DNA from: Candidatus Aminicenantota bacterium
Lineage (GTDB): Bacteria; Acidobacteriota; Aminicenantia; JAMOAD01
Length of the DNA: 40,455 nucleotides
Direction of reading: 5' to 3'
Assembly (NCBI GenBank): GCA_027061995.1
Contig: JAMOUT010000059.1
Span: 1 to 40,455 of the forward strand
Part shown: in pieces, positions 13,566 through 19,928 of the stretch
Numbering within the stretch: the first letter of the stretch is position 1
Layout: each line of letters starts with the position of its first letter
The notes under the pieces: model-generated
The model's input: only the letters and a program-made list of their open reading frames with translations
What the model was told of the DNA's origin: nothing
Databases searched by the model: none
Program-made: the position numbers and the translations under genes

Positions 13566-13898
13566 TTAATTCCTTCTCTGTTTTATCCACTCCGCAACAG
13601 CTTCATCAACAGTTTTCGCTTTTGTAAGAAAAGTTTCTATATTCAACTCTGTTACAAGTTTTTTTCTTGATTCCTCACCCATTCTTTTTGCAACAAAAAC
13701 CTTGCAATCATCAAGAAATTTTATAATAAGACGGGGGTCATCATGATGCTGACCTTTTGAATAGGGATTTACCCTTTTCTCAATCAGATTTCCCTCATCA
13801 TCATATATAAAATAATAGGGAGATATTCCAAAGTGCCCGACCCATAAACTCTTTTCATCTTTACCGACTCCTACGGCAATATACTTTCTCTCACTCAT
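13566..13898 (-). CDS. NifX/NafY-fold (dinitrogenase Fe-Mo cofactor family) protein
   Basis: A 110-residue single-domain protein of the PF02579 family, whose members bind iron-molybdenum cofactor precursors or, in orange proteins, a Mo-Cu cluster. The family pattern is visible as GVGKDEKSLWVGHFGISPYY followed by FIYDDEG, then NPYSKGQHHDD and a closing TVDEAVAEWI helix. The HH pair and a single cysteine (DDCKVFVAKRMG) are candidate metal ligands. It is the last gene of the ORP-like operon; GGAGG precedes its start, which overlaps the stop of the DUF59 gene (TAATG). No nifHDK genes are present, so a nitrogenase role is unlikely. Confidence 0.82.
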   Translation of the reverse strand: MSERKYIAVGVGKDEKSLWVGHFGISPYYFIYDDEGNLIEKRVNPYSKGQHHDDPRLIIKFLDDCKVFVAKRMGEESRKKLVTELNIETFLTKAKTVDEAVAEWIKQRRN

Positions 13899-14212
13899 TA
13901 ATTTTCCTCCTTTTCTTTTTCATCAAGTTGTTTAAGATACTCCATCGCTTGTTTTGCATAAACAAAATCAATAACTTCCATATCAACTTTTTTCACCCCT
14001 TCAACTTTTACTATAGCTTGCTTTATCATAAGAGCAAGTTGAATTCCTATGGGACAAATAAAAGCTGTAGGCTTAAAAACAAGGGAAACTTCTCCTGTTT
14101 TTTCATCAGCTTTCAAATCACGAACAAGCTTCAAAGACACGACATCCTGTCTTAATTCGGGATCATAAACCTGTTTAAGTTCATTTATTATTCTCTCTTC
14201 CAAATTATTCAT
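13898..14212 (-). CDS. MIP18/DUF59-family Fe-S assembly protein
   Basis: A 104-residue protein of the SufT/PaaD/MIP18 (DUF59) family, which helps deliver or mature Fe-S clusters. It has the usual start LEERIINELKQVYDPELRQD followed by VVSLKLVRDLKAD, then a beta segment and TAFICPIGIQLALMIKQAI with one conserved cysteine. The more common variant carries DPE and a TxxxCP motif; here the form is TAFICP, which fits. It overlaps the upstream ATPase by four bases (ATGA) and the downstream NifX-like gene by one, so the partners are clearly co-translated. A role in loading clusters onto the two ferredoxin-ATPases is an inference from position. Confidence 0.85.
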   Translation of the reverse strand: MNNLEERIINELKQVYDPELRQDVVSLKLVRDLKADEKTGEVSLVFKPTAFICPIGIQLALMIKQAIVKVEGVKKVDMEVIDFVYAKQAMEYLKQLDEKEKEEN

Positions 14213-15093
14213 TTTAATCCCTCTAATATTTTTTTAAACATCTTATCAAAAATATCTCTTAATTCCGGGCATCCGTCAGTTGTAAATTTCAGATCCACCA
14301 ATGAATCAACAACACACCTTGAAAAAGGGATTTCACCTATCACCGGAATATCTCTTTTATTGGCATAATCTTTTATTGATTGAGTGTTTTTTTCATTTAA
14401 AGTGGCTTTATTAATTATTATCCCTACGGGAACATTAAAATGTTTTGCGGTTGCTATAGCTCTCTCCATATCATGAATAGCCGAAAGAGTTGGTTCGGCG
14501 GCTATAATAGCATAACTTGCCCCGGACAGAGAGGATGTTACAGGGCAACCTATCCCCGGAGGGCCGTCAACAACGATTAACGGGATATCATTTTCATCGG
14601 TTATAAGATGAGCTTGATGTTTAACCATTGTAACAAGATTTCCCGAGTTTTCAGCTCCCGGATAAAGTTTTGCATGAACCATCTTACCGGAATTCGTATC
14701 CGATACATACCATTCTCCTACTGTCTGAGGTATCATATCAATCGCATCAACAGGGCAAACAAGTTGACAAAGGCCGCACCCGTCACATCTGAAAGGATTG
14801 ACTATATATTCCGAATTAATAATGTCTATAGCTTCAAATCTGCAATACTGCCTGCAAAGATCACATGAAGTGCATGCGTCATTTCTTATCTCTGCAATAG
14901 ATTTCCCGATAAAACTCTCTTTTTTAAGTATTCTCGGAGCAAGAAGAATATGCATATCAGCCGCATCAACATCAGCATCGGCAATAACAAATTCATATCC
15001 GTTTTTATAAAGCCAATTAACGAACGATGATGTTATGGTTGTTTTACCTGTTCCCCCTTTTCCACTTATAAACACTATCTCTTTTGCTCTCAT
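14209..15093 (-). CDS. MinD/ParA-type ATPase with inserted 2[4Fe-4S] ferredoxin domain (ORP-type)
   Basis: A 294-residue deviant-Walker-A ATPase: SGKGGTGKTT at 10-19, DADVDAADMH after the Walker region, and VVDGPPGIGCPV as Walker B/switch. Between the first and second parts of the ATPase sits a ferredoxin insert with Cys 74, 77, 80, 84 and 103, 106, 109, 113, enough for two [4Fe-4S] clusters. This architecture is typical of the ATPases in the Desulfovibrio orange-protein operon and of many anaerobic archaea and bacteria. It resembles its neighbour (15090-15923) in layout but not closely in sequence, so the two may form a heterodimer. Four-base overlaps join it to both neighbours. Confidence 0.9.
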   Translation of the reverse strand: MRAKEIVFISGKGGTGKTTITSSFVNWLYKNGYEFVIADADVDAADMHILLAPRILKKESFIGKSIAEIRNDACTSCDLCRQYCRFEAIDIINSEYIVNPFRCDGCGLCQLVCPVDAIDMIPQTVGEWYVSDTNSGKMVHAKLYPGAENSGNLVTMVKHQAHLITDENDIPLIVVDGPPGIGCPVTSSLSGASYAIIAAEPTLSAIHDMERAIATAKHFNVPVGIIINKATLNEKNTQSIKDYANKRDIPVIGEIPFSRCVVDSLVDLKFTTDGCPELRDIFDKMFKKILEGLK

Positions 15094-15923
15094 TTCAGCC
15101 TCCTTTCGATTTTCTGATAAAGCTCTTTCATCCCTTGCTCAAATCTCGCAAAAGGAAGTTCCCCTTTAGAATATCCTTTTGCTATCTCTTCCTCAAAAGG
15201 TATTCTGTAGATTATCTCTATGTTTTCTTTTTTCGCATACTCTTCCAAGCTCGTATTACCCTCTTTATACTTATTTTCAACAATGGAAAAAGGCTTACCG
15301 AGATCTCGAACAAGTTCCACTGTCAGAGAAAGATCATGTATTCCGAAAGGTGTTGGTTCGCTTACAAGCAAAACATAATCAACATCCCTTAGAACCTCCA
15401 CAACAGGACATGAAGTTCCCGGAGGAGCATCTATTATAACCTTTTCATCATCTTTAATCTCTCTTTTTACTGCACTGATTAATGGCACAGCCGTAGGCTC
15501 TCCGAGATTAAGCAACCCTCCTAGAAACCTGACATCTCCGGCTTTTCCCTTTCTTATAATACCCTTTTTTCTCGGAACTTCAACAAGAGCCCCCTTTTCA
15601 GGACAAACATAAGAACAAATTCCGCATGAATGACAAAGTTCGGGGAAAAAAAGCCACTTTTTTGTCGGTTTTATAATAACAAGAGCTTTATAAGGACATT
15701 CATCAGCGCAAATTCCGCAAAAGGTGCATTTATCATCTTTTATCTCGGGAACAAGTTCCGAAAAATCTTTTTCCTCCGTTATCTCTGGTTTTAAAAAAAA
15801 ATGACCGTTCGGTTCTTCCACATCAGTGTCAACATATAATGCAGGTCTGTTTGCATAAGCAAAGAGGGTTGTAAAGGTTGTTTTACCTGTCCCCCCTTTT
15901 CCCGATGCTATCGCTATTTTCAT
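15090..15923 (-). CDS. MinD/ParA-type ATPase with inserted 2[4Fe-4S] ferredoxin domain (second copy)
   Basis: A 277-residue paralogue of the downstream ATPase. The P-loop ASGKGGTGKTT is at 6-16; the ferredoxin insert has Cys 66, 69, 72, 76 and 97, 100, 103, 107; VIIDAPPGTSCPV is the Walker B/switch region, and its CP is the motif in Mrp/NBP35-like ATPases. The role is probably ATP-driven insertion or transfer of a metal cluster into the NifX-fold proteins encoded around it, by analogy with Mrp/ApbC scaffolds. That role is inferred. It overlaps the downstream ATPase by four bases and lies ten bases after the preceding NifX-like gene. Confidence 0.9.
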   Translation of the reverse strand: MKIAIASGKGGTGKTTFTTLFAYANRPALYVDTDVEEPNGHFFLKPEITEEKDFSELVPEIKDDKCTFCGICADECPYKALVIIKPTKKWLFFPELCHSCGICSYVCPEKGALVEVPRKKGIIRKGKAGDVRFLGGLLNLGEPTAVPLISAVKREIKDDEKVIIDAPPGTSCPVVEVLRDVDYVLLVSEPTPFGIHDLSLTVELVRDLGKPFSIVENKYKEGNTSLEEYAKKENIEIIYRIPFEEEIAKGYSKGELPFARFEQGMKELYQKIERRLK

Positions 15924-15932
15924 GATTTACCT

Positions 15933-16319
15933 CTATTCATTATGATGAGGAAATATTTTATCAGCTTGTTCATGAGATGTTGCCGACATAACCTCTTTTA
16001 ATTTTCCATTAAGATAATTTTTTATCGCTTCTTCTATTGTCATATCCTCATCAGCTTTATACATTTTTATATCACCCTCTTTTAATACTCTATGAGCATT
16101 AGGACCGAAATTAGTTGATATTGCAACCGTAGAACCTGTTTTAATAACAGTTTGGGCTAAAGAGATTCCTACGGATGATTGCCCCGCTTTATAAGGATTT
16201 TCTTTTGCTTCAAACTCTTTTGTTTCAGTATCATAAATTATAAAATAATCACACCTTCCGAATTTAGGATCTACCTTACTTTTTAAAGAATTACCCGTTG
16301 AAGTTATAAATATTTTCAT
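15933..16319 (-). CDS. NifX/NafY-fold protein with His-rich C-terminus
   Basis: A 128-residue PF02579 protein. The core is seen in KVDPKFGRCDYFIIYDTETK, NPYKAGQSSVGISLAQTVI, then ISTNFGPNAHRVL and a closing MTIEEAIKNYLNGKL helix. The GR-C pair in FGRCDYF and the His in NAHRVL are candidate metal ligands, and the tail ends KIFPHHNE, a possible metal-binding end. GGAGAG lies ahead of the ATG, and an extended -10 (16342-16350) upstream suggests a second promoter. The gap of 116 bases to the preceding gene holds a nested hairpin, so this gene may start a sub-operon. Confidence 0.83.
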   Translation of the reverse strand: MKIFITSTGNSLKSKVDPKFGRCDYFIIYDTETKEFEAKENPYKAGQSSVGISLAQTVIKTGSTVAISTNFGPNAHRVLKEGDIKMYKADEDMTIEEAIKNYLNGKLKEVMSATSHEQADKIFPHHNE

Positions 16320-16350: not shown

Positions 16351-16410
16351 CATCCCATAATAATTAACTCCTCCCCAAATTAATGGGGAGGAGTTATTCT
16401 TAAGGGATGT
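16350..16410. repeat. Nested inverted repeat between two ORP-like genes
   Basis: An inner perfect stem AACTCCTCCCC/GGGGAGGAGTT (16366-16376 with 16385-16395, 8-base loop) sits inside outer arms ACATCCC/GGGATGT (16350-16356 with 16404-16410). It is too strong to be chance. With no long T run after it on the minus strand, it is more likely an mRNA stability or attenuation element than a simple terminator. Confidence 0.7.
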
Positions 16411-16435: not shown

Positions 16436-16987
16436 TTACCAGCCGCCTCTGCCAAATCCGCCGCCACGGCCTCTTCCCATTCCACCACCGCGACCGAATC
16501 CGCCTCCACGGCCTCTTCCCATTCCACCGCCACGACCAAATCCGCCGCCTCTGCCGAATCCGCCGCCAAAACCCGAACCAAATCCGCCTCCCATTCCTGT
16601 TCCGCCAAAACCACCTGCGGGCGGATAAGGGGGTTGCTGTGTGGGATTTTGAACCGCTTCCGAAAGCTGACCTTGTGAAGCCATTTTAAAAGCCTCGGCT
16701 ACATTCGTTCCTTCCGGTGCCGAAACCATCTGAATACCGGCACTTGAAAGAACCGAAGAAGCATTAGGACCAAATGCTCCGGATACAACAATTCCCACTC
16801 CTTGGGATGCAACAAATTGAGCCGCCGCTATTCCCGCTCCTGATGGTGATGCAGCATTAGGGTTTGGTAAAATTTGAACCGCATCAGGATTATTTGTGTC
16901 AAAAATCACATAAAACGGAGCTCTTCCGAATCTCGGATCAATAGGACCATTCAAATCTTCAGAGCTTGCTGTTACTAATATTTTCAT
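16436..16987 (-). CDS. NifX/NafY-fold protein with Gly/Arg/Phe repeat tail
   Basis: A 183-residue protein. Residues 1 to about 115 form a PF02579 domain: ILVTASSEDLNGPIDPRFGR, APFYVIFD, then GIAAAQFVASQGVGIVVSG, AFGPNASSVL and GTNVAEAFKMA. After a PPYPPAG linker the rest is low complexity, made of G, R, F and M in GGGFGRGGGMGRGR units. The DNA of the tail is a 42-bp tandem repeat (16452-16550). The tail resembles RGG/FG-rich segments, but its role is unknown. GGAGG within the end of the preceding gene serves as ribosome site (ATGA overlap). Confidence 0.85.
   Translation of the reverse strand: MKILVTASSEDLNGPIDPRFGRAPFYVIFDTNNPDAVQILPNPNAASPSGAGIAAAQFVASQGVGIVVSGAFGPNASSVLSSAGIQMVSAPEGTNVAEAFKMASQGQLSEAVQNPTQQPPYPPAGGFGGTGMGGGFGSGFGGGFGRGGGFGRGGGMGRGRGGGFGRGGGMGRGRGGGFGRGGW
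16452..16550. repeat. 42-bp tandem repeat encoding the Gly/Arg tail
   Basis: Two full units (16452-16493 and 16494-16535) and a partial third match with only a few changes. Each encodes 14 residues of glycine, arginine, phenylalanine and methionine. Copy number is likely to vary between strains. Confidence 0.8.
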
Positions 16988-17613
16988 TTTTCCTCCTTGT
17001 TATTTTTTTCTAATTCATTCAACCTTTTTTTATAAATATCAAGTTGATTTTCAAGTTGTTCAACCATATTTTTTAAAAACTCTTTCTCATTATAAATATT
17101 TGATTGCAGGGGAAACATTGGAAATCCCGGATTATAATATCCTCTATTCCATCCCCAACCTCTTCCGAAACCTTTTCCCCAACCGAAACCTCCGAAAAAA
17201 CCACTTGTTCCTACAAAAGGATTAAAAGTTTGACGACTCATTCCATAATTGTTTCCGTATTGGAAATTCCCTTTCACAGTTTGATTTGAATAATCTCCCC
17301 TTTCAATCTTTTCCACCGCATCTTTAACACTTATTCCCGTGGTTTCAACAAACATTTTAATTCCCGATGAATTTAAAATCATCGAAGAGTTAGGACCAAA
17401 AGTCCCTGATATCACGGCTTGAACCCCTTTCTCAATCACAAGTCGGGCTGCTGAAATACCCGCTCCCGAAGGTGTATTTACAAAAGGGTTTTGAACAATC
17501 TCCGCATTATCCGTATCTTCCGAATCCAAAATTATTAAAAACGGAGCTCTCGCAAACCTCATATCAACAGGAGAATTTAAATCTCCTGAGGATGCTGTTA
17601 CAAGAACTTTCAT
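16984..17613 (-). CDS. NifX/NafY-fold protein with FG/GW linker and C-terminal coiled coil
   Basis: A 209-residue protein. Residues 1 to about 110 form a PF02579 domain (VLVTASSGDLNSPVDMRFAR, APFLIILDSED, GTFGPNSSMIL, ISVKDAVEKI). A Gly/Phe/Trp-rich linker from about 125 to 160 follows (GFGWGKGFGRGWGWNRG). The C-terminus from about 168 is a heptad-like helix (EFLKNMVEQLENQLDIYKKR, then LNELEKNNKEEK), probably a coiled coil for oligomerisation, as in DUF5320-type proteins next to such clusters. GGAG precedes the ATG inside the preceding gene. It looks like a fusion of the NifX fold and a DUF5320-like end. Confidence 0.83.
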   Translation of the reverse strand: MKVLVTASSGDLNSPVDMRFARAPFLIILDSEDTDNAEIVQNPFVNTPSGAGISAARLVIEKGVQAVISGTFGPNSSMILNSSGIKMFVETTGISVKDAVEKIERGDYSNQTVKGNFQYGNNYGMSRQTFNPFVGTSGFFGGFGWGKGFGRGWGWNRGYYNPGFPMFPLQSNIYNEKEFLKNMVEQLENQLDIYKKRLNELEKNNKEEK

Positions 17614-17900
17614 TTTTTCTCCTCCTTGGGCTCATTTTGAACAGGGGTATCATACTGCATAGGATATCCGACTCCGGTATAAGGAATGGTATTTACAGGG
17701 TAATAACCTTGATTCATCCATCTCCACCCTCTCGGAAGACCGGACCAAGGACAGTATCCCATTGTTGCGCCATAACCACGGCCTCTTCCGATTCCAAAAC
17801 CTCTTCCTCTGCCAAAGCCTCTTCCCCTTCCGAAACCTTTTCCTCTGCCTAAACCAAAACCTCCTAAACCATAATAATAAGGATTCATATAGTTAAACAT
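17610..17900 (-). CDS. Gly/Arg-rich DUF5320-like protein
   Basis: A 96-residue protein dominated in its first half by GFGRGR-type hexamers (about 15-45), then GYCPWSGLPRGWRW and a Pro/Tyr-rich end. The combination of a GRGRG segment with an aromatic-GLP-GW motif resembles DUF5320 proteins, which are commonly encoded beside NifX/ferredoxin-MinD clusters and have no known function. A single cysteine is present. AAAAGGAGG precedes the ATG. The stop overlaps the next start (ATGA). There is no NifX domain, so it is an accessory factor of the operon, possibly a scaffold. Confidence 0.75.
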   Translation of the reverse strand: MFNYMNPYYYGLGGFGLGRGKGFGRGRGFGRGRGFGIGRGRGYGATMGYCPWSGLPRGWRWMNQGYYPVNTIPYTGVGYPMQYDTPVQNEPKEEKK

Positions 17901-17918
17901 ATCACACCTCCTTTTTAT

Positions 17919-18047
17919 TTATAATTTTGAGATTAGATTTTCAGCTGTTTTTATTTCTATAAATCCACCACTCTCTATCACTATCTCTTTTTTACCTTTT
18001 AAAACAAAATTATCCTTAATATTAAAATCACAATGTTTATTTCCCAT
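17919..18047 (-). CDS. Small 42-residue protein of the ORP-like operon
   Basis: On the minus strand an ATG at 18047-18045 opens 42 codons to a TAA at 17921-17919. The protein begins MGNKHCDFNIKDN, continues with a hydrophobic/charged alternation (KKEIVIESGGFIEIKT) and ends AENLISKL. GGGGG lies four bases upstream, and the ATG overlaps the 3' end of the first operon gene by 11 bases, a typical coupled arrangement. The next gene follows after 18 bases with its own GGAGG. I recognise no family. The residues form a plausible small beta fold with one Cys and one His. The coupling makes it likely real. Confidence 0.6.
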   Translation of the reverse strand: MGNKHCDFNIKDNFVLKGKKEIVIESGGFIEIKTAENLISKL

Positions 18048-18480
18048 ATTTTCCCCCTTTATTGAATCGTTTTCTGTTTTTTCCGAATCCACTTTTATTT
18101 CCGAACCCTCTTCTCAATCCTTTGCCCGTGTTGCCAAACCCTCTTCCTTTACCTTGACCGAATAAAGTAAAAATCGGAGAAAGTTTATTTTCAACAAACA
18201 TCATAGCCGCGGTATCAGGTTCCATAAAACCTCCGTTTATTATCTCTATCCCGTTTATATAGATATTTCTTAAAAAACCTCTCGGACCACCGCCGCATAT
18301 AACAACATCAACATTCTCTTCCTTCAATAATCCAACTATTTCAAGCGAATAATCAAGCAAAAGATTTACCGTTTTTTTATCCGTTATTTTCCCATTGTCC
18401 ATATCATAAATTACAAGTTTCTCCGAAAAATCCAATCTCGGAGCAACAATATTTTTAAAAACCGCAACCGCTACTTTCAT
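18037..18480 (-). CDS. NifX/NafY-fold protein, first gene of the ORP-like operon
   Basis: The protein has 147 residues from the ATG at 18480. Residues 1 to about 105 form the PF02579 fold: MKVAVAVFKNIVAPRLDFSE, LVIYDMDNGKI, VDVVICGGGPRGFLRNIYING. The end is basic and Gly/Phe-rich (GKGRGFGNTGKGLRRGFG, then KSGFGKNRKRF). The cysteine in VVICGGGPRG is a candidate metal ligand. In-frame ATG (18489) and TTG (18495) starts lie upstream, but the sigma-54 promoter at 18491-18506 predicts transcription from about 18480, so those codons would not be in the mRNA. The gene then has a leaderless message and a clean family-type N-terminus. Confidence 0.83.
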   Translation of the reverse strand: MKVAVAVFKNIVAPRLDFSEKLVIYDMDNGKITDKKTVNLLLDYSLEIVGLLKEENVDVVICGGGPRGFLRNIYINGIEIINGGFMEPDTAAMMFVENKLSPIFTLFGQGKGRGFGNTGKGLRRGFGNKSGFGKNRKRFNKGGKYGK

Positions 18481-18490
18481 ACTTTTCATA

Positions 18491-18506
18491 AGCAATTTTC
18501 ATGCCA
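18491..18506 (-). promoter_or_regulatory. Full-consensus sigma-54 (-24/-12) promoter of the ORP-like operon
   Basis: The minus strand reads TGGCATGAAAATTGCT, which fits every position of the sigma-54 consensus TGGCAYRNNNNTTGCW. The GC of the -12 element is at 18493-18492, giving a start near 18480, the A of the first gene's ATG. A divergent sigma-54 activator gene begins 139 bp beyond the promoter, which strongly supports this call. Confidence 0.9.
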
Positions 18507-18558: not shown

Positions 18559-18619
18559 AAGTTGCATTTTGCATCTTATTGTTTCTTTATAATTAACCTA
18601 ACGCATCATCTTGCAACTT
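18559..18619. promoter_or_regulatory. Possible upstream activator site (inverted repeat)
   Basis: AAGTTGCA (18559-18566) and TGCAACTT (18612-18619) are perfect inverted copies 45 bases apart. Their centre lies about 109 bp upstream of the sigma-54 transcription start, the usual place for enhancer-type activator binding. The right arm overlaps the -35 box of the activator's own promoter. Confidence 0.45.
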
Positions 18620-18644: not shown

Positions 18645-19928
18645 ATGGAAAACAATAATTATCTCCAAATAATAGATTATCTTTTTGAAGGAATTTTTAT
18701 AATAGATAATAATTTTACAATAGTTGGCATAAATAAAGCCGCATCCGAGATTACGGGATATACGAAAAAAGAAGCGGAGGGAAAACGCTGTTATGAGATA
18801 TTAAAAACAGATATTTGCAGAATAGATTGTCCCATCAAAAAACTGAAACAGGGAAAATCTGCGGATGAACGGATTATAAACATAATTACAAAAAAGAATG
18901 AGGAGAAACATATAAAATTAAAGATTTTCCCTTTTAATAATAATTGGATTGAGATTTTTCAGGATGTTACAAGAGAGGTAGAGCTCGAAAAAAGAATAAA
19001 CAAGAGATATATAATAGATGACATTATAACTTCCGATGAAAAACTTTTTGACCTTTTATCCGCTCTTCCCAAGATTGCTCTCAGTGATGTATCAGTTCTC
19101 ATAGAGGGGGAAAGCGGAGTCGGTAAAGAGGTATTTGCAACAGCTTTAAAGAATCTCAGTAAAAGGAAAGATCAACCCTTTGTCAAGATTAATTGCGCCG
19201 CCCTACCGGATACCCTTCTTGAATCAGAACTTTTCGGATATAAAAGAGGTGCTTTTACGGATGCCAAGAAAGATAAACCGGGACTGTTCATGCAGGCTCA
19301 CAAAGGGACTCTCTTTCTTGATGAGATAGGTGATATGAGCTTATCTCTTCAAGCAAAACTTCTAAGAGCCGTTGAGACCGGAGAGATTGTTCCCCTCGGA
19401 GGGATTGAATCGGAAAAAGTGGATGTCAGAATAATTGCGGCTACAAACAAAGACCTTTCGGTAGAAGTTAAAAAAGGAAAATTCAGGGAAGATCTTTTCT
19501 ATAGATTAAATGTTGTTAATATTAAAATTCCACCCTTAAGAAACAGGAAAAAGGATATCCCTCTTTTTATCGATTATTTTATAAATAAATTTAATATAGT
19601 TTATCGGAAAGATATTAAAGGGATTACCAAAAACGGACTGAATATCTTATTAAATTATGATTTTCCGGGTAATATAAGAGAACTTAAAAATATTATCGAA
19701 CATGCCTTTGTTTTTTGTGATAAGGATTTTATTGATACTGATGATTTACCAGATTACCTGAAAAACATTAAAGAGGAAAATACAGAAAAACCCCATCCCT
19801 TCAATGAAAAAGAGAGAATAATAGAGGCTCTTGAAATTACAAAATGGAATAAGAAAAAAGCGGCGGAATTATTAGAGATAGACAGGACAACACTTTGGCG
19901 TAAAATGAAAAAATACGGTTTATTATAA
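18645..19928 (+). CDS. PAS-domain sigma-54-dependent transcriptional activator
   Basis: An NtrC-type activator of 427 residues, likely controlling the divergent ORP-like operon. The N-terminal PAS domain (about 5-105) holds three cysteines at 49, 58 and 62 (DICRIDCP), which could sense redox state or bind a cluster. The AAA+ domain has Walker A GESGVGKE at 155-162 and the sigma-54-contacting GAFTDA at 202-207, with LFLDEIGD as Walker B. The C-terminal Fis-type helix-turn-helix is EALEITKWNKKKAAELLEID with RTTLWRKMKKYG. There is no receiver domain, so activity is set by the PAS domain rather than a kinase. It ends 24 bp before the tRNA-Phe gene on the other strand. Confidence 0.95.
   Translation: MENNNYLQIIDYLFEGIFIIDNNFTIVGINKAASEITGYTKKEAEGKRCYEILKTDICRIDCPIKKLKQGKSADERIINIITKKNEEKHIKLKIFPFNNNWIEIFQDVTREVELEKRINKRYIIDDIITSDEKLFDLLSALPKIALSDVSVLIEGESGVGKEVFATALKNLSKRKDQPFVKINCAALPDTLLESELFGYKRGAFTDAKKDKPGLFMQAHKGTLFLDEIGDMSLSLQAKLLRAVETGEIVPLGGIESEKVDVRIIAATNKDLSVEVKKGKFREDLFYRLNVVNIKIPPLRNRKKDIPLFIDYFINKFNIVYRKDIKGITKNGLNILLNYDFPGNIRELKNIIEHAFVFCDKDFIDTDDLPDYLKNIKEENTEKPHPFNEKERIIEALEITKWNKKKAAELLEIDRTTLWRKMKKYGLL

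What the first reader, a model, noticed from the sequence alone, without database searches (positions are those of the whole stretch)
16436..18480. Four neighbouring proteins share FG/RG-rich low-complexity tails
The products of 18037-18480, 17610-17900, 16984-17613 and 16436-16987 all carry stretches of G, F, R and W (GFGRGR, GGFGRGGGMGRGR, GWGKGFGRGWGW), three of them attached to a NifX domain. RGG/FG-like segments in other systems support weak multivalent contacts, RNA binding or condensates. Their repetition across one operon points to a shared assembly or scaffold role for the cofactor proteins.
Basis: partly seen in the sequence, partly recalled or inferred. Interest (0 to 1): 0.65.

Follow-up and report, generated by a model that had tools for sequence, protein, structure and literature searches.

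The report
Conserved iron-sulfide scaffold-like operon with RG tails
Four adjacent genes of an uncultured anaerobic bacterium (Candidatus Aminicenantes) encode proteins with conserved, positively charged, floppy glycine-arginine-aromatic segments like that of the archaeal iron-sulfur storage protein IssA, so this looks like an unstudied bacterial system that may hold iron sulfide in a protein-mineral particle.

Summary
These four genes are the four most glycine-rich of 42 in the window. Two descriptions need correcting: B (17610-17900) is almost wholly low-complexity rather than tailed, and C (16984-17613) carries its Gly/aromatic segment between a NifX domain and a coiled-coil helix, and matches Pfam DUF5320.

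The set A-B-C-D recurs in the same gene order in 9 related Aminicenantes genomes, apart from losses at contig ends and one inserted gene. It sits beside the same PAS-sigma54 activator wherever the contig reaches that far (9/9 including the window). A sigma54 -24/-12 site precedes gene A in 7/9, and a terminator hairpin follows D.

D's tail keeps about 50% Gly, about 10% Arg+Lys, aromatics and a terminal Trp, whether the surrounding DNA is 33% or 54% GC. In the closest pair its dN/dS is 0.05. AlphaFold leaves it unstructured. Slippage or drift alone is therefore rejected.

The closest characterised system is IssA of Pyrococcus furiosus, a NifX-domain protein whose cationic Gly/aromatic tail is proposed to wrap thioferrate in storage nanoparticles. 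I propose a multi-subunit IssA/IssX-like iron-sulfide scaffold under sigma54 control (confidence 0.5). The chemistry is untested. RNA binding has no specific support.

The parts
18037..18480 (-). Gene A: divergent NifX-like domain with basic (K/R/G/F/N) tail, 147 aa
   Evidence: PF02579 at 23 bits, below cut-off; tail pI 12.0; own clade on the NifX tree
17610..17900 (-). Gene B: 96-aa GFGRGRG/aromatic protein with no recognised domain; one invariant Cys
16984..17613 (-). Gene C: NifX domain, disordered Gly/aromatic segment, C-terminal helix; NifX-DUF5320 fusion
   Evidence: PF02579 and PF17253 above cut-off; AlphaFold
16436..16987 (-). Gene D: NifX domain, Pro-rich linker (QQPPYPP), 58-residue GFGRG/RGG tail ending in Trp
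18491..18506 (-). Predicted sigma54 -24/-12 promoter TGGCATGAAAATTGCT
   Evidence: 1 mismatch to TGGCACGN4TTGCW; same site upstream of A in 7/9 loci
18559..18619 (.). Possible activator-binding site: inverted repeat AAGTTGCA / TGCAACTT, arms 45 nt apart
   Evidence: weak evidence, not the same sequence in all relatives
16365..16396 (-). Terminator-like hairpin after D, 13 bp stem
18645..19928 (+). Divergent activator: PAS with three invariant Cys, sigma54-interaction AAA domain, Fis-type HTH
13566..16319 (-). Adjacent ORP-like operon: tail-less NifX, two MinD/ParA-type ATPases with ferredoxin insert, FeS_assembly_P protein, NifX-like protein; probably a separate transcription unit
   Evidence: on other contigs in the same-family relatives

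Best explanation
Genes A-D are one sigma54-controlled unit encoding a multi-subunit, IssA/IssX-like iron-sulfide scaffold. Proposed working: a redox- or Fe-S-sensing PAS activator turns the unit on. The NifX domains of C and D bind Fe and sulfide and start an anionic iron-sulfide (thioferrate-like) chain. The disordered cationic Gly/aromatic segments of A, C and D, and the low-complexity protein B, wrap that chain by charge and aromatic contacts and cross-link subunits into particles. C's coiled coil adds oligomerisation. The stored Fe-S then feeds Fe-S proteins, possibly the neighbouring ATPases. Shown here: architecture, conservation, selection, disorder prediction, and predicted promoter and terminator. 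Inferred: ligand, particle formation, sensing, storage role.
For: Set conserved in order in 9 relatives, always beside the same activator where the contig reaches, with a sigma54 site in 7/9. D tail dN/dS 0.05 and composition constant against GC bias. Tails unstructured by AlphaFold. Tail make-up like IssA's: IssA 70 aa with 15 Gly, 7 cationic, 14 aromatic, pI 10.7; C segment 64 aa with 15 Gly, 5 basic, 16 aromatic, pI 10.3; D pI 12.0. Nearest solved sequence to C and D is MTH1175, called IssA-type by the IssA authors; the C/D clade shares a 60-row supported group with it that excludes ORP. In one relative a CoA-disulfide reductase gene lies inside the module; SipA (IssA) and the sulfur reductase Nsr are both induced by sulfur in Thermococcales.
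Against: P. furiosus IssA itself was not in the tree. The best fold match of D is ORP, not MTH1175. D has no Cys, whereas IssA has one in its tail. D is richer in Gly and poorer in aromatics than IssA. In one family C has lost its Gly segment. Ferritin is present in most module-bearing relatives. No biochemical data.
Confidence: 0.5

Rival explanations
1. The module is an accessory of an ORP-type complex: the tails hold NifX/ORP subunits and the MinD-like Fe-S ATPases together while a discrete metal-sulfide cluster (Mo/Cu or Fe-S) is built or passed on, without mineral storage.
For: ORP-like ATPases, a tail-less NifX and a PAS-sigma54 activator are adjacent; the D. vulgaris orp operons are sigma54-controlled by a cognate activator with palindromic sites; D's best fold match is ORP 2WFB.
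Against: A terminator-like hairpin separates the units; in same-family relatives the ATPase operon lies on other contigs and shows no sigma54 site; by sequence C and D are nearer MTH1175 than ORP.
Confidence: 0.25
2. The RG/RGG segments bind RNA or DNA, and the four proteins form a nucleic-acid condensate or chaperone, as RGG proteins do elsewhere.
For: D has six RGG and eight RG motifs; B has eight RG; the segments are basic and predicted disordered.
Against: No RNA-related gene in the unit; the folded partners are NifX domains of metal-sulfide families; RGG triplets are absent from A, B and C; IssA offers a non-RNA precedent for the same chemistry.
Confidence: 0.12
3. The segments are neutral low-complexity sequence spread by repeat slippage.
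For: D has a 42-bp repeat in 2.3 copies and B has 18/36-bp repeats; tail lengths vary.
Against: Tail dN/dS 0.05 with no gaps in the closest pair. Composition constant over 33-54% GC with F-to-W/Y exchange and a constant terminal Trp. At least 9 gains or losses of Gly-rich tails on the NifX tree, so the composition recurs.
Confidence: 0.04

Closest known systems
IssA (SipA, PF2025) of Pyrococcus furiosus and the uncharacterised 'IssX' clade (Vaccaro et al. 2017, PMC5524996)
   Same: NifX/IPR003731 domain plus disordered, cationic, Gly/aromatic-rich C-terminal region; in D preceded by a Pro-rich stretch; composition conserved rather than sequence
   Different: Here several co-encoded proteins instead of one homomeric protein; includes a protein that is nearly all low-complexity (B) and a coiled-coil fusion (C); D lacks Cys and is richer in Gly; sigma54 control
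ORP (orange protein) complex and orp operons of Desulfovibrio vulgaris (PMC3897727, PMC6345978)
   Same: NifX-type proteins, paired MinD-like ATPases with ferredoxin motifs nearby, sigma54 activator beside the genes
   Different: RG-tailed A-D have no counterpart in the ORP component list given in those papers; the ATPase operon is separable from the tailed module; C and D are nearer MTH1175 by sequence
Pfam DUF5320 (PF17253)
   Same: C passes the Pfam cut-off (40.4 vs 27 bits); Gly/Arg stretch then C-terminal helix; DUF5320 genes sit beside NifX genes across the class
   Different: C lacks the DUF5320 head (MPRGDRTGPxGxGPxTGRG) and is fused to NifX; B resembles it only in composition

Membership tests
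IssA (iron-sulfur storage) | NifX/IPR003731-type globular domain | tested here: met
   C and D above the PF02579 cut-off; A below it
IssA (iron-sulfur storage) | Disordered C-terminal tail, cationic, Gly and aromatic rich, after a Pro-rich part | tested here: met
   D. C has the composition but the segment is internal
IssA (iron-sulfur storage) | Falls in the IssA clade of the NifX-domain tree | tested here: inconclusive
   C/D group with MTH1175 and apart from ORP, but P. furiosus IssA was not available
IssA (iron-sulfur storage) | One Cys, in the tail (reported for the P. furiosus protein; not stated to be required) | tested here: not met
   C and D have no Cys
IssA (iron-sulfur storage) | Binds thioferrate and forms 20-300 nm particles | not testable with these tools
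   Needs biochemistry, XAS and TEM
ORP complex | sigma54 promoter and adjacent cognate activator | tested here: met
ORP complex | Orp3/Orp4-like ATPases encoded with the module | tested here: inconclusive
   Adjacent here, on other contigs in same-family relatives
ORP complex | Mo/Cu sulfide cluster on the NifX-type protein | not testable with these tools
   Needs purified protein
DUF5320 (PF17253) | C scores above the curated cut-off | tested here: met
   40.4 vs 27 bits
DUF5320 (PF17253) | B scores above the cut-off | tested here: not met
   No match for B; profile match to DUF5320 covers only the Gly/Arg run
RGG RNA-binding proteins | RGG/RG motifs in a disordered basic segment | tested here: met
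   D only for RGG (six)
RGG RNA-binding proteins | RNA binding by the RGG segment | not testable with these tools
   Needs a binding assay

The most novel reading that the evidence does not exclude
A bacterial multi-component iron-sulfide mineral condensate: four proteins share one compositional code, including a nearly all low-complexity 'glue' protein and a coiled-coil linker, under redox-sensing sigma54 control, and together they build and release an Fe-S store that so far is known only from the single-protein IssA system.
Probability: 0.25. Interest if true: 0.82.

Novelty: new variant of a known kind. Interest (0 to 1): 0.55.

Why it matters
IssA is the only characterised thioferrate protein I found, and its tailed bacterial relatives have been named but not studied. 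A conserved bacterial operon that spreads the tail chemistry over four proteins would make the open question of how anaerobes store iron and sulfur directly testable. It would also give a first functional context for DUF5320, for which I found no functional literature.

Tried and rejected
Slippage or drift as sole origin: rejected by dN/dS, composition constancy and the fixed terminal Trp. Replacement of ferritin by the module: ferritin is absent here but present in 7 of the 9 other module-bearing genomes, so dropped. Homology of B to DUF5320: the profile match covers only the Gly/Arg run, so not claimed. A viral-contig search with the D tail region found no relative. My first sigma54 scan had an error in the -12 check and found nothing; it was redone. 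P. furiosus IssA was not obtained, so a direct tail and tree comparison with it was not possible.

Full report
WHAT IS THERE. The window is a contig of a Candidatus Aminicenantes genome: orthologous loci carry that name in the public records, and they are genomes of the same family and class as the window. On the minus strand four genes run 18480 to 16436. I call them A (18037-18480), B (17610-17900), C (16984-17613) and D (16436-16987). Ranked by the most Gly in any 30 residues, these four are the top four of 42 genes (20, 16, 12 and 11; next 8). D's tail has no other match in the genome.

CORRECTIONS TO THE DESCRIPTION. C and D carry clear NifX domains; A's is below Pfam's cut-off. B has no recognisable domain. 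C's Gly/aromatic segment is internal: residues 124-201 match DUF5320 (E 7e-10, above cut-off). AlphaFold gives C a NifX domain, a disordered stretch 112-173 and a helix 176-208, and D a NifX domain at pLDDT about 90 with a tail near 45.

CONSERVATION. Nine relatives (three of the same family, six of another family in the class) hold the same set in the same order, apart from losses at contig ends and one inserted gene. The activator at 18645-19928 (PAS, sigma54-interaction domain, Fis HTH) has an orthologue next to the module wherever the contig reaches far enough: 8 loci plus the window. Three Cys in its PAS domain are invariant in the five aligned. A -24/-12 sigma54 site precedes A in 7 of 9 with 0-1 mismatches, and degraded versions sit at the same place in the other two. 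A 13-bp hairpin follows D. So A-D look like one transcription unit, separate from the NifX/ATPase operon at 16319-13566, which lies on other contigs in the same-family relatives. More distant families of the class carry a more distant activator of the same type (about 41%) near tailed NifX and canonical DUF5320 genes.

SELECTION, NOT SLIPPAGE. Repeats exist at DNA level (42 bp x 2.3 in D; 18/36 bp in B). But D's tail keeps Gly 0.49-0.56, Arg+Lys about 0.10, almost no acid, and a final Trp in 7 of 7 complete copies, while locus GC ranges from 33 to 54% and F is exchanged for W/Y. Between the two closest genomes D's tail aligns without gaps with dS 0.54 and dN 0.03, ratio 0.05, against 0.09 for the domain. 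Gly alternates with other residues (GxGxG) more than in shuffles, strongly in B and D, weakly in A and C. On a tree of 134 NifX domains C and D form one clade (100/96) and A falls in another. Well-supported branches force at least nine gains or losses of Gly-rich tails, so the composition has been gained or lost repeatedly (few columns, many open forks, and the label was set by a simple rule).

WHAT IT WORKS LIKE. IssA of P. furiosus is a NifX-domain protein with a 70-residue tail: Pro-rich, then cationic, aromatic and Gly-rich, pI 10.7, predicted unstructured. It stores Fe and S as thioferrate in particles of 20-300 nm. Its authors propose that the tail wraps the anionic chain, note that composition rather than sequence is conserved in the tail, and mention uncharacterised non-thermophilic 'IssX' proteins with Gly-rich, high-pI tails. 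C's segment is close to that composition (15 Gly, 5 basic, 16 aromatic of 64, pI 10.3); D has the Pro stretch followed by a more Gly-rich tail, pI 12. The nearest solved sequence to both C and D is MTH1175, which those authors describe as an IssA-type protein with little or no tail; ORP comes second. Fold comparison puts ORP first. In one relative a CoA-disulfide reductase gene, closest to structures deposited under that name, is inserted between A and B. SipA (the earlier name of IssA) and the sulfur reductase Nsr are both induced by sulfur in Thermococcales; that Nsr belongs to this enzyme family is my own knowledge.

PROPOSED MECHANISM. The activator senses redox or Fe-S status through its PAS Cys (inferred; recalled as precedent from D. 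vulgaris OrpR, not verified here) and fires a sigma54 promoter. C and D bind Fe and sulfide on the NifX domain and start an iron-sulfide chain. The tails of A, C and D, plus B, cover and cross-link it, and C's helix oligomerises. The store feeds Fe-S proteins, possibly the adjacent ATPases. Architecture, conservation, selection and predicted disorder are shown; ligand, particles and sensing are inferred.

RIVALS. An ORP-type cluster-assembly complex is the main rival: weakened by the separable ATPase operon and the sequence affinities, supported by the regulator layout and the fold comparison. RNA-binding RGG condensates cannot be excluded but have no specific support. Neutral slippage alone is rejected. 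Against the favoured model: no direct tree with P. furiosus IssA, no Cys in D, one family in which C has lost its Gly segment, and ferritin present in most module-bearing relatives.

NOVELTY. The component idea (tailed NifX protein holding iron sulfide) is known. What is new is a conserved multi-gene bacterial unit in which four proteins, one almost only low-complexity and one a NifX-DUF5320 fusion, share that chemistry under sigma54 control. I found no functional paper on DUF5320 and none on this arrangement, in an open-access library only.

Noticed in passing
18480-18506, and the same place in L123-L130: The start codon of gene A lies at +1 to +3 of the predicted sigma54 start site in all nine loci examined (seven with a recognisable -12), suggesting near-leaderless sigma54 transcripts.
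   Followed up: partly
about 17919-18047, minus strand: A 42-codon ORF (MGNKHCDFNIKDNF...) lies between A and B, overlapping the end of A; it may be a real small gene (read).
   Followed up: no
L123:4933-6285: A CoA-disulfide reductase-like gene is inserted between A and B in one relative.
   Followed up: partly
L051, L053, L054, L131, L156, L159, L160, L166: Small proteins with a Gly/Arg-rich head and a zinc-ribbon-like CxCPxCG...CPKCGT end recur beside NifX and DUF5320 genes.
   Followed up: no
whole genome G000: No ferritin-family gene was found in this 95% complete genome, although 35 of the 40 genomes searched have one; could be an assembly gap.
   Followed up: partly
L062:5692-6168 (G000 contig 52): A second NifX locus in this genome has an acidic, coiled-coil-like tail instead of a basic Gly-rich one.
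   Followed up: no
L153:4022-4606, L157:4100-4588: NifX followed by a Gly/Arg-rich, helix-ended region also occurs in Bathyarchaeota; in L153 it matches DUF5320.
   Followed up: partly
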